Source: Phycisphaerales bacterium (lineage in GTDB: Bacteria > Planctomycetota > Phycisphaerae > Phycisphaerales > UBA1924). From it: a stretch of 64,000 nt of DNA. Below the pieces are notes generated by a model. It was given only the letters and a program-made list of their open reading frames with translations. It was not told the DNA's origin and made no database searches. A program made the position numbers and the translations under genes. Shown here one piece after another: positions 58,130 through 64,000 of the stretch. The DNA lies in NCBI GenBank assembly GCA_022072615.1, contig JAJVHS010000006.1, positions 62,001 through 126,000 on the forward strand. Direction: 5' to 3'. Every line of letters begins with the position of its first letter. Positions within the stretch are counted from its first letter, which is position 1.

Positions 58130-59053
58130 ATGGCCGAAACACCTTCACCCCCCGCGCACGGCGACGGCTCAGCCGCGGCGGTTGAGTATCGCGACGTCAC
58201 GTTCGCGTACCCGTCCGCGGCGGGCAACGGCCAACCGGTCCCGGCGGTGCAGGGCGTGACCTTCGACGTCCGGCGCGGCGAGTGCCTTGGGATCCTGGGT
58301 CCCAACGGCGGCGGCAAGAGCACGTTGGTCAAACTCACCCTCGGCCTCCTGCGCGGCGCCCGCGGGTCCATCCGCGTCTTCGGTCAGCCGCCGGACACTG
58401 CTCGTCGCGACGGGCTGGTCGGCTACGTCCCGCAGCGCATGGGAGCGGAACTGGCGTTCCCCGTCAGCGTCCGACAGGTTGTGTCGATGGCGGCGGCGGG
58501 CGGGCTCCCGCCCTGGAAGACCCTGCCCGCGGCCAGGATCGACCTCGTCAATCGCATGCTCGGCCTGGTCGGGATGTCGGAGTTTGCCGACCGGCCGATC
58601 GGGAAGCTCTCGGGCGGCCAGATCCAGCGGGTCATGATCGCTCGCGCGCTTGCCGCTTCTCCCCGCCTGCTGATGCTCGACGAACCCACCGTCGGGATCG
58701 ACGTGGCGGGGCTCCAGCGCTTCTCCGAGCTTCTGCTCCGCGTGCGGCGGGAGCTGGGCGTGACGGTCATGATCGTGAGCCACGACATCCGGGCCATCGC
58801 CGGGTCGTGCGACCGCGTCGCGTGCCTGAGCCGGACGCTCCACTTCCACGACGCCCCGCAGGGCCTGACGCCCGCGGTGCTGGCCGAAGTCTTCCGGCAC
58901 GACGTGTCGGGCATCTTCGGCGACGTGCACGTGGAGGCCCACACGGCGGCGGGGTGCACCGACCCCTCGCATCATCACGGTCCGCTTGACGGACCGGTGT
59001 CGATGACGGTCTCGGCGCCGCCACGGCCGCCGCAGGGAGTCCCCGGGCCGTGA
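58130..59053 (+). CDS. Zinc/manganese-type ABC transporter ATPase (ZnuC-like)
   Basis: A 307-residue ABC ATPase. Walker A GPNGGGKST, signature LSGGQIQRV, Walker B LLMLDEPTVGID and the H-loop IVSHD are intact. The family block VEYRDVTFAYPSAAG and its permease partner point to the metal-uptake class (ZnuC/MntB/TroB). The C-terminal tail carries a short His-rich piece (DPSHHHGPLDG) that may sense or bind metal. A TACATT at 58113-58118 lies 11 bases from the ATG. Its stop overlaps the permease start (GTGA). Confidence 0.92.
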   Translation: MAETPSPPAHGDGSAAAVEYRDVTFAYPSAAGNGQPVPAVQGVTFDVRRGECLGILGPNGGGKSTLVKLTLGLLRGARGSIRVFGQPPDTARRDGLVGYVPQRMGAELAFPVSVRQVVSMAAAGGLPPWKTLPAARIDLVNRMLGLVGMSEFADRPIGKLSGGQIQRVMIARALAASPRLLMLDEPTVGIDVAGLQRFSELLLRVRRELGVTVMIVSHDIRAIAGSCDRVACLSRTLHFHDAPQGLTPAVLAEVFRHDVSGIFGDVHVEAHTAAGCTDPSHHHGPLDGPVSMTVSAPPRPPQGVPGP

Positions 59054-59943
59054 AGACGATCGAGTATCTCTCCAACCCGGTGATGTTCAACCTGCTGATG
59101 CCCGGCATCGTGACCGGCCTGTTCATGGCGGTGATGTGCGCGGCGTTGAGCGTGCTGGTCGTGCTCAAGAAGCTGAGCTTCATCGGCCAGGGGATCAGCC
59201 ACGCGGCGTTCGGCGGCATGGGGATCGCCGCGGTGCTCGGGCTCACCGGCATGGGCGCGGCGGCGCTTGGGCAGTTCGGCGTGGTCGTGGCGTTCTGCCT
59301 TGCATCCGCGCTCATCATCGCGTGGCTCTCGGGGCGTGGATCGACCTCGGCGGATACGGCGATCGGGATCGTGCTCGTGGCCTCGATGTGCCTGGGCGGC
59401 ATCCTGCTGCACATCTCCATGAGCCGCGCGACCGGTTCTCCCGGCACCGCGTGGGAGTCGGTCCTGTTCGGATCGATCCTCGAACGGTCCGCGACCGAGG
59501 CCTGGCTTGCGTTGCTGGCGGCGGCGGTGGTGCTCGGGGCCGCGTGGTGGTGCCGCCGTCCGCTGCTGTTCTGGGCCTTTGATGAAGCGGCCGCGCCCGC
59601 GTTCGGGGTGTCGGGCCCGCGGATGCGCAACCTGCTGCTGGTCCTGCTGTGCCTGGCGATCGTGACGGCGATGAAGGTGTCCGGCGTCGTGCTGCCGACG
59701 GCCATGCTGGTGCTGCCGGCGGCATCGGCGCTGAGCGTGTCGGACCGCCTGTGGCCGGTCTTTGCGATCTCCCAGGCCGCGGCGCTCACCGGCGTCGTCG
59801 TCGGCATCGTGGCGAGCCTCGAACTGGGCTGGCCGCCCGGCCCGTGCGTGGTCGCGACGCTGACGCTGCTGTTTGTCATCTGCCGGGGCTACGAGGCCGT
59901 CACGCGGCGGGCCCGCGCTCCCGTCGTCGTTGCCGCAAGGTGA
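59050..59943 (+). CDS. Zinc/manganese-type ABC transporter permease (ZnuB-like)
   Basis: A 297-residue permease with eight or nine hydrophobic spans (LLMPGIVTGLFMAVMCAALS, VLVVLKKLSFIGQGISHAAF, then GGMGIAAVLGLTG). The ISHAAFGG segment is typical of the ABC-3 metal permease family. The start is a GTG inside the upstream stop (GTGA), so translation is coupled. No solute-binding lipoprotein or Fur-type regulator is nearby, so specificity (Zn, Mn or Fe) is open. Confidence 0.92.
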   Translation: MKTIEYLSNPVMFNLLMPGIVTGLFMAVMCAALSVLVVLKKLSFIGQGISHAAFGGMGIAAVLGLTGMGAAALGQFGVVVAFCLASALIIAWLSGRGSTSADTAIGIVLVASMCLGGILLHISMSRATGSPGTAWESVLFGSILERSATEAWLALLAAAVVLGAAWWCRRPLLFWAFDEAAAPAFGVSGPRMRNLLLVLLCLAIVTAMKVSGVVLPTAMLVLPAASALSVSDRLWPVFAISQAAALTGVVVGIVASLELGWPPGPCVVATLTLLFVICRGYEAVTRRARAPVVVAAR

Positions 59944-60153: not shown

Positions 60154-61110
60154 TCACGCGTTGGCGAGCGGCGTGATCGTGCACGCAAGCCACCGGCGCA
60201 GCGGGAGCGCGTCCAGCAGGGCGCCCACGGCCGGCCGGTCGGCGGCGCGCACGATCAGCCAGCCGCTGCACTGGTCTGCGGCGATCCAGCGTTCGAGAAG
60301 CACGCCGTCGCGCCGCCACTCTTCGAGCATCGCCCGCTCGCGCGGGATGAGCGCGTCGATCTCCGGGGTATCCGGGCCGTTCCAGGTCCACGCGACCATG
60401 AAGCGCGGGGCTCGGTCTTGGTACCGGTCGTCGCAGTCGTCGACGCCGGGGTAACGCAAGGGCGGTGTCGTGAAGAGCGAATGCAGACGGGCTTCGTACT
60501 CGGCGAGCATCCGGGCGCGGTCCTCGGCGGTCGCCCGGGACACCTGCCACGCGATGAACGGCGGCAACGGCTGGAAACCGGTGAACCAGAAGACGCCGTG
60601 CTGGATGGGCCTCAGGATCGATTCGAGCGACGGATTCAGGCCCCATCCGTCGAACATGGATGCGGGGCCGCCGGTCGTCATTGCGACCATCGCCCGCTTG
60701 CCCTTGAACGCGCCGCGCTCGTACCACTTCCCGTTCCCATAGACACGCCCGGCCGCCATCACGCGGTCGATCCAGCCCTTGAGGATCGCGGGGACGCCGA
60801 ACCACCACATGGGGAACTGGAAAATCAGAGCGTCGCAGCGCTCGAGCTTGGCCATCTCGGCGGCGATATCGGATGAGAAGCCGTCGTGCTCGGACGCGTG
60901 TGCTTCCTCTCGCTGCTGCTTGAGGAATGCCGGATCCTTGACCGTCGTGAAGTTGCGCCGGTCCGAGACCGGATCGAAGCCCATCGCGTAGAGGTCGGAA
61001 ACGATGACCTCGTGGCCGTCACCTGCCAGCACCCGCCGCGCACGCTGGGTCATCGCGGCGTTGAAACTCGCCGGCTCATGATGGGCGTGAACGATGAAAA
61101 CGGTGGCCAC
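60154..61110 (-). CDS. NAD(P)H oxidoreductase (flavodoxin fold) fused to a YciI-like domain
   Basis: A 318-residue protein. The first 220 residues are a flavodoxin-2/NQO1-like quinone reductase fold: VFIVHAHHEPASFNAAMTQR, VIVSDLYAMGFDPV, DALIFQFPMWWFGVPAILKG (flavin loop) and AMVAMTTGGPASMF. The final 100 residues (RFMVAWTWNG, MLEEWRRDGVLLERWIAADQ, CSGWLIVRAADRPAVGALLD) read as a YciI/muconolactone-isomerase-like ferredoxin fold. The start is a GTG at 61110; GGAGAA upstream and a 19-base gap couple it to the small gene before it. Substrate unknown. Confidence 0.85.
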   Translation of the reverse strand: MATVFIVHAHHEPASFNAAMTQRARRVLAGDGHEVIVSDLYAMGFDPVSDRRNFTTVKDPAFLKQQREEAHASEHDGFSSDIAAEMAKLERCDALIFQFPMWWFGVPAILKGWIDRVMAAGRVYGNGKWYERGAFKGKRAMVAMTTGGPASMFDGWGLNPSLESILRPIQHGVFWFTGFQPLPPFIAWQVSRATAEDRARMLAEYEARLHSLFTTPPLRYPGVDDCDDRYQDRAPRFMVAWTWNGPDTPEIDALIPRERAMLEEWRRDGVLLERWIAADQCSGWLIVRAADRPAVGALLDALPLRRWLACTITPLANA

Positions 61111-62203: not shown

Positions 62204-63700
62204 TTATGTGCGACTGATGATGTCCCTGGCTTGCGAGAGCACGGCGTCGGCCTCGTCGGCGGTGGGGGCCTCGGCGATCAGCCGCATGATGGGCTCGGTG
62301 TTGCTCGCTCGGATGTGCAGCCACGCCTTGCCCGCCAGGGGACCGGTGGTGAAATCCACCCAGGCGCCGTCCTGGAGGTCCACGCGGTTCTCCTTGTAGG
62401 CGGCGGCGATGCGCTCGATCGCCGGACGGGCATCCTCGCGCCTGGCAAGGTCGGTCTTCTGCTTGCGGATCGCGTACGTCGGGATGCCGGATATCACTTC
62501 GCTGAGCTTACGTTTGCGGCCGTTGCCCGCGCCCGCGGGCGAGAGCAGCCAAAGCACCAGGCCCATCGCCGCCAGCGAGTCGCGAACGTACGTCACACGC
62601 GGCCAGATCGAGCCCCCGTTGCCCTCGCCGCCCAGCAGAGCGCCGCGGGCTTTCATCGTCTCGACCACGTTGGCTTCGCCCACCGCGGTGCGGAGCACTG
62701 AAGCCCCATACCGACCCGCCACGTCGTCGAGCATCCGGCTGGTGGAAAGGTTCGTCACCAGCACGTGGCCCTTGGTCGGCTGCCCGGACCGGCTCATCGC
62801 TTCCAGCAGCGCCAGCGCCGAGAGCGCGAGCGTGTACTCCTCGCCGATGTACCTGCCCCGCTCGTCCACGATCGCAAGTCGGTCGGCGTCGGGGTCCTGG
62901 GCAAAGCCGACGTCGCTCTCGTTCTCGCGGACCGCGTCGCACAGCCCGCCCGGCGTGCTCAGGTTCTCCAGGGTTGGTTCGGGCGGGTGCGGGAAGATCC
63001 CCGTGTCCTCCGCGCCCAGGTGCAGGATCTCCTCGACGCCGAGCGCTTCGAGAAAGAGGTGCGACCCGGTCGCGCCCGAGGCATTGACCGAATCGACGGC
63101 GATGTTCAGCCCGGCGCCCAGCAGCGACGCGTCCGAGCACAGGCCCGCGGCCTCGAGCGCTGCGGTCACGCGATCAACGTGGGCCTCGGCGGCGGAGTCG
63201 TCGTCGGTGATCTCGCCGACGTCGTGCCACTCCGCCCCGCGGACCGCGTTGGATTCAAAGCGTTCGATGATCTGCGCCGCGAACGCGGCGGGCGGGGCGC
63301 ACGCGGCACTCCCGTGGTCCCCGGATTCGGCGAGCAGGCACTTCAGGCCGTTCCACTGCTGCGGGTTGTGGCTGGCCGTGAGGACCATCCCCGCGACGAA
63401 GGTGTCGGGCGATTCGGCTCGGTAGGCGTCGGTCAGGACGGCGGTGGTGGGGGTCATGGCGACGCCCAGGTCGACGACATCGCAGCCGGCGCCGCAGAGG
63501 CCCGCGAGCGCCGCTCGGTGGATGACCTGGCCGCCGGCGCGGCCGTCGCGGCCGAGGACCACGGTGACCGGCTTGCCGCCCGCGCGTTCGATGAGCCAGG
63601 AGGCGTAGGCGGCGGCGAACCTCGCGGCGACCTCGGCGGTGAGGCTCTGTCCGACGATTCCGCGGCAGCCCGAGACCGACAGCATGAGGGGAGCGTTCAT
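62204..63700 (-). CDS. glmM: Phosphoglucosamine mutase
   Basis: GlmM converts glucosamine-6-phosphate to glucosamine-1-phosphate for UDP-GlcNAc and peptidoglycan/LPS. Visible are the active-site serine in LTASHNPQQWNGLK, the metal loop AQDPDADRLAIVDERG, the sugar-specificity loop LGGEGNGGSIW and the phosphate-binding end RASNTEPIMRLIAEA. At 498 residues it is somewhat longer than bacterial GlmM (about 445) and could overlap functionally with phosphomannomutases; GlmM is preferred because of GEGNGG. TACACT (minus 63717-63712) ends 11 bases upstream of the ATG. Confidence 0.9.
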   Translation of the reverse strand: MNAPLMLSVSGCRGIVGQSLTAEVAARFAAAYASWLIERAGGKPVTVVLGRDGRAGGQVIHRAALAGLCGAGCDVVDLGVAMTPTTAVLTDAYRAESPDTFVAGMVLTASHNPQQWNGLKCLLAESGDHGSAACAPPAAFAAQIIERFESNAVRGAEWHDVGEITDDDSAAEAHVDRVTAALEAAGLCSDASLLGAGLNIAVDSVNASGATGSHLFLEALGVEEILHLGAEDTGIFPHPPEPTLENLSTPGGLCDAVRENESDVGFAQDPDADRLAIVDERGRYIGEEYTLALSALALLEAMSRSGQPTKGHVLVTNLSTSRMLDDVAGRYGASVLRTAVGEANVVETMKARGALLGGEGNGGSIWPRVTYVRDSLAAMGLVLWLLSPAGAGNGRKRKLSEVISGIPTYAIRKQKTDLARREDARPAIERIAAAYKENRVDLQDGAWVDFTTGPLAGKAWLHIRASNTEPIMRLIAEAPTADEADAVLSQARDIISRT

Positions 63701-63769: not shown

Positions 63770-64000
63770 ATGTTCGAGATCTCGGTACAGGCGACGTTCA
63801 GCGCGGCGCACGCGTTGTCGATCGCGGGGGCTCGGGAGCCGGTGCACGGCCACGACTGGAAGGTGACCGTGGTGGTGTCCGGGACGACCCTCGACGCCGA
63901 CGGTCTGCTGTGTGATTTTCACACGGTCGAGGAAACGCTCCAAACCATTACCAAACAATACAACAACAATAACCTGAACCAGATCGAGACGTTTACAAGA
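63770..64000 (+). CDS. 6-pyruvoyl-tetrahydropterin synthase/QueD-like, 3' end outside window
   Basis: Seventy-seven codons are visible. The T-fold pattern FSAAHALSIAG ... VHGHDWKVTVVVSG keeps the three zinc histidines of QueD/PTPS. The catalytic Cys (normally just before the HGH) is not present, and the usual LDHxxLN block near residue 65 reads NNNNLN, so Asp and His are also missing. This may be an inactive or altered relative; the gene symbol is therefore withheld. The last 70 bases are strikingly AT-rich compared with the rest. The remainder of the gene lies beyond the window. Confidence 0.8.
   Translation, partial: MFEISVQATFSAAHALSIAGAREPVHGHDWKVTVVVSGTTLDADGLLCDFHTVEETLQTITKQYNNNNLNQIETFTR

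What the first reader, a model, noticed from the sequence alone, without database searches (positions are those of the whole stretch)
63770..64000. QueD/PTPS-like protein missing the catalytic Cys and the Asp-His pair
The zinc histidines (AAHAL, HGH) are kept, but the cysteine that normally precedes HGH is absent and the LDHxxLN region reads NNNNLN. This would remove the catalytic triad of 6-carboxytetrahydropterin synthase. The local base composition also drops sharply (AAC/AAT codons), unlike the rest of the window.
Basis: partly seen in the sequence, partly recalled or inferred. Interest (0 to 1): 0.5.

Follow-up and report, generated by a model that had tools for sequence, protein, structure and literature searches.

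The report
Folate-type PTPS enzyme lacking catalytic triad
This gene is probably not a broken QueD but the folate-pathway enzyme that stands in for the missing FolB in Phycisphaerae bacteria; it keeps the known substitute glutamate but has lost the aspartate-histidine pair that other known versions keep, which hints at which active-site parts the reaction may not need.

Summary
The gene (window 63770 onward) continues to a full 126-aa COG0720/PTPS protein. The Cys before HGH is absent and the LDHxxLN region reads NNNNLN. The motif is ExxHGH, the published PTPS-III signature; in Plasmodium that Glu redirects the enzyme to 6-hydroxymethyl-dihydropterin, the FolB product. Searches of the genome find FolE2, FolK and a FolP candidate but no FolB, plus a separate Cys-type QueD and a PTPS-II-like paralogue. 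In the class, 0 of 64 genomes with this gene have FolB above cut-off; 3 of 4 without it do. Glu23 and the three zinc histidines are invariant in 58 of 58 orthologues. So this is probably an active FolB replacement, not a dead QueD. The unusual part is the Asp-His pair: absent in 57 of 58 order-level orthologues, while all 65 Cys-bearing homologues in a 130-row set keep it. Strong homologues read elsewhere in the phylum are mostly CExxHGH hybrids with Asp-His (30 of 38). Plasmodium and Pyrococcus Glu-type enzymes keep Asp-His, so its loss is a lineage-specific variant. Best reading: a zinc/glutamate-only PTPS-III that no longer needs the Cys-Asp-His triad. No activity was measured.

The parts
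63770..64000 (+). PTPS/COG0720 coding sequence, codons 1-77 of 126; continues beyond the window to G000:C3:126150
63809..63811 (+). His14, zinc ligand by homology (AAHAL)
   Evidence: invariant in 58 of 58 and 80 of 80; the two sets overlap
63836..63838 (+). Glu23, the ExxHGH glutamate of PTPS-III that takes the place of the Cys nucleophile
   Evidence: 58 of 58, 80 of 80; signature from PMC5041015
63845..63853 (+). His26-Gly27-His28, zinc ligands by homology
   Evidence: both His invariant in 58 of 58 and 80 of 80; the Gly between them in 52 of 58
63914..63922 (+). Asp49-Phe50-His51 (CDFH); His51 is nearly confined to the order
   Evidence: H51 in 57 of 58 order orthologues, 2 of 31 CExxHGH rows, 0 of 17 Cys-only, 2 of 17 PTPS-II-like
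63962..63967 (+). Asn65-Asn66 in the place of the catalytic Asp-His pair
   Evidence: Asp-His present in 1 of 58 order orthologues and 65 of 65 Cys-bearing homologues
63904..63978 (+). lowest-GC 75-base stretch of the window (0.413)
62204..63700 (-). phosphoglucomutase/phosphomannomutase, the divergent neighbour
   Evidence: Pfam PGM_PMM domains; adjacent in 53 of the 75 related loci with room upstream

Best explanation
It is the FolB replacement of Phycisphaerae: a PTPS-III-type enzyme that takes 7,8-dihydroneopterin triphosphate (or a less phosphorylated form), made here by FolE2, and cleaves its side chain by a retro-aldol reaction to 6-hydroxymethyl-7,8-dihydropterin for FolK. Zinc held by His14, His26 and His28 polarises the side-chain hydroxyls. 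Glu23 is the base, and Glu114 anchors the pterin. The Cys and the Asp-His pair serve the 6-pyruvoyl/6-carboxy chemistry and have been lost because this enzyme no longer does that reaction; in this genome a separate QueD serves queuosine. Shown by sequence: motif, gene inventory, FolB complementarity, conservation, fold. Inferred: zinc binding, substrate, product, and the roles of the single residues (those of Glu114 and of the triad are recalled from PTPS work).
For: ExxHGH signature; Plasmodium mutagenesis shows that Glu makes 6-hydroxymethyl-dihydropterin. FolB not found in the genome by PF02152 or TIGR00526; FolE2, FolK and a stand-alone PF00809 protein, the FolP candidate, present; FolE not found. 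In 61 genomes (own and 60 relatives) the orthologue is in 58 and FolB over cut-off in 2, both among the 3 without it (p=0.0016); the FolB of G004 is a FolB-FolK fusion. In 199 phylum genomes FolB is in 7 of 57 with a strong hit against 58 of 142 without (p=9e-5). E23, H14, H26, H28, E83 and E114 are 58 of 58 and 80 of 80. dN/dS 0.04-0.27 in 9 usable pairs of 11 tried. AlphaFold2 model of the 77%-identical L111: pLDDT 97.2; best solved match P. horikoshii PH0634, Z 17.4. Cys and Asp-His go together: 65 of 65 Cys-bearing rows keep DH, 63 of 65 Cys-less rows lack it.
Against: No activity is known for any member. Asp-His is kept in the Glu-type enzymes of Plasmodium and P. horikoshii (alignments), so its dispensability is not shown. 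G050 (97% complete) has FolK but neither FolB nor this gene, only a PTPS-II-like one (L252). 84 of 199 phylum genomes have neither a strong hit nor FolB. Seven phylum genomes have both: of the six of these whose gene was read, five are hybrids and one is Cys-only; G092 is Cys-only yet lacks FolB. Five relatives with the gene lack FolE2 (G037, G042, G054, G058, G060), and FolE was searched only in the own genome. A separate QueD is not shown in every genome: G001 shows two PTPS proteins, this one and a PTPS-II-like one, and G022 (82% complete) one. Two Cys-less rows (G051, G203) keep Asp-His. HGH itself is exact in only 52 of 58. No folate gene was seen beside it in this genome; the context is pgm and ppk. 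Independent losses cannot be counted firmly (4 changes on the best tree, 1 forced by supported branches).
Confidence: 0.75

Rival explanations
1. A degenerate, non-catalytic pterin-binding protein of the PTPS fold, as SCO6650 of Streptomyces may be; its solved structure is the second-best match to the model.
For: Asp-His lost; SCO6650 reads NY in that place in the alignment and matches the model at Z 17.0.
Against: In the alignment SCO6650 reads HGA where this family has HxH and Gln where it has Glu23, whereas here all three zinc His and Glu23 are invariant in 58 of 58; a non-catalytic protein would not explain the complementarity with FolB. What SCO6650 does is not known to me from any call.
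Confidence: 0.1
2. An enzyme with a new active-site arrangement: His51 (CDFH), nearly fixed in the order, takes over the acid/base role of the lost Asp-His pair in the same FolB-like reaction.
For: H51 in 57 of 58 order orthologues and rare elsewhere.
Against: The three class-level relatives outside the order lack both Asp-His and His51 (L, R, S), so loss did not wait for His51; its distance to the zinc site could not be measured because no coordinates are given.
Confidence: 0.2
3. A QueD/PTPS of normal function with a replaced triad.
For: It scores 68.7 bits against QueD TIGR03367.
Against: Below the QueD cut-off of 89.25, as is the Cys-type paralogue, so that score does not discriminate; Cys absent; a Cys-type QueD sits beside a QueE-like domain in the same genome.
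Confidence: 0.05

Closest known systems
PTPS-III (COG0720 subfamily; Plasmodium falciparum PTPS, bacterial FolB replacements)
   Same: ExxHGH with no Cys, three zinc His; occurs where FolB is missing. PMC3223725 (passages) states that PTPS-III replaces FolB in many bacteria
   Different: The Plasmodium enzymes keep Asp-His; here the pair is replaced, most often by x-Asn
PTPS-I/III hybrids with CExxHGH
   Same: The form of 30 of 38 strong phylum hits outside the order that were read; same zinc His, same Glu, and Cys118 in 24 of 31 rows
   Different: Hybrids keep Cys and Asp-His (31 of 31 rows); PMC5041015 says that some function in both folate and queuosine pathways
Pyrococcus horikoshii PH0634 (2dj6)
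   Same: Best fold match, Z 17.4, 32% identity over 114 residues; ExxHGH without Cys
   Different: Keeps LDHRNLN. That it is the orthologue of the folate enzyme PF1278 of P. furiosus is recalled, not tested
QueD / PTPS-I
   Same: Fold and zinc His
   Different: QueD has CxxxHGH and Asp-His; here neither
SCO6650 (3d7j)
   Same: Fold; Asp-His replaced (NY)
   Different: In the alignment SCO6650 lacks the third zinc His and the ExxHGH Glu
FolB dihydroneopterin aldolase (PF02152)
   Same: Proposed product; distant fold similarity (Z about 8 to 9)
   Different: Different family; no PF02152 match in the genome

Membership tests
PTPS superfamily (PF01242/COG0720) | Pfam profile above the curated cut-off | tested here: met
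   99.8 bits against a cut-off of 22.4
PTPS-III | ExxHGH signature | tested here: met
   AREPVHGH; Glu23 in 58 of 58, exact HGH in 52 of 58 orthologues; signature from PMC5041015
PTPS-III | stands in for a missing FolB in a folate-making genome | tested here: met
   FolE2, FolK and a FolP candidate present, FolB not found; complementarity. The later steps (dihydrofolate synthase and reductase) were not searched
PTPS-III | Asp-His pair as in the solved Plasmodium members; not part of the published signature | tested here: not met
   NN here; Asp-His in 1 of 58 orthologues
PTPS-III | forms 6-hydroxymethyl-7,8-dihydropterin | not testable with these tools
   needs an assay
QueD / PTPS-I | CxxxHGH with Asp-His | tested here: not met
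   no Cys, NNNNLN
QueD / PTPS-I | TIGR03367 cut-off 89.25 | tested here: not met
   68.7 bits; the genome's Cys-type QueD also misses it at 72.7, so the test is weak
PTPS-II | CxxxxxHGH | tested here: not met
   no Cys; the genome's PTPS-II-like protein is in L002
FolB | PF02152 match | tested here: not met
   the protein matches PTPS, not FolB; no PF02152 match in the held genome

The most novel reading that the evidence does not exclude
A triad-free class of PTPS enzyme: in Phycisphaerae the folate-type enzyme descends from a CExxHGH hybrid that served both queuosine and folate, and on specialising for folate it dropped Cys, Asp and His together, leaving zinc and one glutamate. It would then make 6-hydroxymethyl-dihydropterin alone, without the pyruvoyl by-product of the Plasmodium enzyme, and would show that the Asp-His pair belongs to the pyruvoyl/carboxy chemistry and not to the carbon-carbon cleavage. 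Cys-less enzymes in two other families of the phylum (f54: HY, NY; f37: DY) look like parallel cases.
Probability: 0.43. Interest if true: 0.55.

Novelty: new variant of a known kind. Interest (0 to 1): 0.43.

Why it matters
PMC5041015 presents COG0720 as a clear case of paralogue misannotation, and these genes match best to QueD/PTPS models. A set of natural enzymes without the triad could separate the residues needed for cleavage from those needed for the pyruvoyl and carboxy reactions, which in the work I saw was approached by point mutants of one Plasmodium enzyme (PMC2229834). It also fills the FolB gap of folate synthesis for a group known largely from metagenome-assembled genomes.

Tried and rejected
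Dead gene or assembly error: rejected (orthologues agree; dN/dS 0.04-0.27 in 9 usable pairs of 11 tried; one pair, L156/L168, was compared out of register and its value of 2.6 is meaningless, one pair failed on an N). Insert particular to this genome behind the low GC: rejected; the two same-genus genes share the dip. Folate neighbours: none seen beside the gene in this genome; the neighbours are pgm upstream (53 of the 75 loci with room) and ppk downstream (53 of 78). The other genes of those 80 loci were not annotated: an all-frames ORF clustering was swamped by spurious high-GC frames and was not used.

Independent-loss test: the best tree needs 4 changes for Cys and 4 for Asp-His, but supported branches force only 1, and the paired sign test has no power. 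Distance of His51 or Asn66 to the zinc site: no coordinates are returned. Literature: the 2009 PTPS-III paper is not held; the listings of searches showed no title or abstract start on an Asp-His-less PTPS-III, in a library that lacks most subscription papers; only passages of four papers were read.

Corrected on checking: PMC4674097 says that FolB is absent from Planctomycetes genomes, not that PTPS-III was reported there. The QueE-like domain is below the cut-offs of the QueE models. Odds lowered slightly because more contrary cases were listed.

Full report
WHAT IS THERE. The reading frame opens with ATG at 63770, and the window holds its first 77 codons. The window is bases 62001-126000 of contig C3 of the held genome, so the rest of the gene could be read: 126 residues, ending with the stop codon at C3:126150. 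It is a PTPS family protein (PF01242, 99.8 bits). The zinc histidines H14, H26 and H28 are present, there is no Cys before HGH, and the LDHxxLN site reads NNNNLN. The drop in GC is real too: the 75 bases from 63904 are the lowest of the window, and the two same-genus genes dip at the same codons.

THE MISSED RESIDUE. The motif is E-P-V-H-G-H. PMC5041015 (passages) gives ExxHGH as the signature of PTPS-III, CxxxHGH for QueD/PTPS-I, CxxxxxHGH for PTPS-II, and CExxHGH for I/III hybrids. In P. falciparum the Glu is needed to make 6-hydroxymethyl-7,8-dihydropterin; E38L gives no detectable product and E38C gives only the conventional pterin product (PMC2229834, passages). So the absent Cys has a known, active substitute.

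THE GENOME. Three PTPS proteins are encoded. One has CRFPHGH and LDH and lies beside an open frame with a TrmB domain (over cut-off) and a radical SAM domain whose best matches are QueE models, below their cut-offs: the likely queuosine enzyme. One has CNNAAGHGH and FDHKHLN: PTPS-II-like. The third is this one. FolB is not found by two profiles. FolE is not found, but FolE2 and FolK are. Of two PF00809 matches the stand-alone one is the likely FolP, the other lying in a 1205-residue frame; this split is my inference. The genome is 91.9% complete, so single absences are weak on their own.

FOLB COMPLEMENTARITY. Among 61 genomes (own and 60 relatives), 58 have the strong orthologue (62 bits or more; G004 has only a 28-bit paralogue match, G032 and G050 none). 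FolB over cut-off is in 2, G004 and G032, both among the 3 without it (p=0.0016). The FolB of G004 is one open frame with FolK; in G032 both matches are given with a frame of 359 aa. G050 has neither. G053, which has the orthologue, has a FolB match below the cut-off. In a phylum sample of 199, a strong hit (88 bits or more; the next is 63) is in 57, FolB in 65, both in 7, neither in 84 (p=9e-5). Of the seven with both, six were read: five hybrids and one Cys-only. Pooling the distinct genomes of the class by hand: FolB over cut-off in 0 of 64 with the gene and in 3 of 4 without. These genomes are related, so the p-values are too small.

OTHER STEPS IN RELATIVES. FolK is in 59 of 61 and FolE2 in 56 of 61. 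Five genomes with the gene lack FolE2, and I did not look for FolE in them. Not every genome shows a separate QueD: G001 has this protein and a PTPS-II-like one only, G022 (82% complete) this one only.

CONSERVATION. In 58 orthologues from the order, F10, H14, E23, H26, H28, L41, D49, F50, L69, F75, A82, E83, E114 and C118 never vary; the Gly of HGH is kept in 52. Asp-His is present in one (G051). In 80 loci of genome contigs, which overlap the 58, E23, H14, H26, H28, D49, F50, H51, E83 and E114 are 80 of 80; position 66 is N in 69; no row has Asp-His. dN/dS is 0.04 to 0.27 in the 9 usable pairs of 11.

THE UNUSUAL PART. I read 38 of the 48 strong phylum hits outside the order: 30 are CExxHGH with Asp-His, 2 are Cys-only with Asp-His, and 6 are Cys-less without it, three of these from the same class. 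Over 130 rows (58 orthologues, 21 phylum rows, 51; two loci gave no match and one duplicate was dropped), all 65 rows with Cys have Asp-His, and 63 of 65 without Cys lack it. The exceptions are G051 and G203. Cys-less enzymes outside the class, in f54 (HY, NY) and f37 (DY), have also lost the pair. But Plasmodium and P. horikoshii enzymes of the Glu type keep it, so loss of Cys does not force loss of Asp-His. The class rows form one group with SH-aLRT 94, below the 95 mark; 109 columns cannot settle the number of losses.

TWO MARKER RESIDUES. Cys118, four after Glu114, is in 88 of 96 Glu-bearing rows and 0 of 34 Glu-less rows. His51 is confined almost wholly to the order. I know of no role for either. 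The three class-level rows outside the order lack His51 and Asp-His, so His51 came after or apart from the loss.

FOLD. The model was made for L111, 77% identical, because the job accepts only certain loci; mean pLDDT 97.2. Best solved matches are P. horikoshii 2dj6 (Z 17.4, rmsd 1.5, 114 residues), SCO6650 (17.0), E. coli QueD (16.9) and the Plasmodium enzymes (about 15). Zinc was not modelled.

MECHANISM. Shown: motif, gene inventory, complementarity, conservation, fold. Inferred from PTPS-III work: the substrate is dihydroneopterin triphosphate or a less phosphorylated form, Glu23 is the base, and the product is 6-hydroxymethyl-dihydropterin. Inferred here: Cys, Asp and His serve the pyruvoyl/carboxy chemistry and were dropped once another enzyme covered queuosine. 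The prediction is a single product.

NOVELTY. PTPS-III as a FolB substitute in many bacteria is known (PMC3223725, passages), and absence of FolB from Planctomycetes genomes has been noted (PMC4674097, passage). The listings of ten paper searches showed nothing on an Asp-His-less PTPS-III, but the 2009 PTPS-III paper is not held. I rate it a new variant of a known kind.

Noticed in passing
L003:1990-3375 (-), G000 contig C2: One 461-aa open frame matches TrmB (tRNA m7G46 methyltransferase, over cut-off) and, further on, a radical SAM domain closest to QueE models (below their cut-offs), next to QueD: an apparent TrmB-QueE fusion.
   Followed up: partly
63770-64000 and L111-L190: The gene lies between a divergent phosphoglucomutase (53 of the 75 loci with room) and a co-directed polyphosphate kinase (53 of 78).
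   Followed up: partly
residue 118, beyond the window (L004): Cys four after the conserved Glu114 marks Glu-bearing PTPS proteins: 88 of 96 rows against 0 of 34.
   Followed up: partly
L266 (G004), L251 (G032): The two genomes of the 61 with FolB over cut-off carry it joined to or in the same frame as FolK, and have a second, separate FolK elsewhere.
   Followed up: partly
G050 (L252): A 2.2-Mb genome, 97% complete, with FolK and FolE2 but neither FolB nor this gene; one PTPS-II-like protein.
   Followed up: no
60154-61110 (-): One open frame with a flavodoxin-like domain and a muconolactone isomerase domain.
   Followed up: no
58130-59943 (+): ATPase and permease of an ABC-3 family transporter about 4 kb upstream.
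   Followed up: no
L164, L170, L174: Records named Bacteroidia, Chitinophaga pinensis and Leptolyngbya carry the Phycisphaerae-type gene; possibly misnamed or mis-binned MAGs.
   Followed up: no
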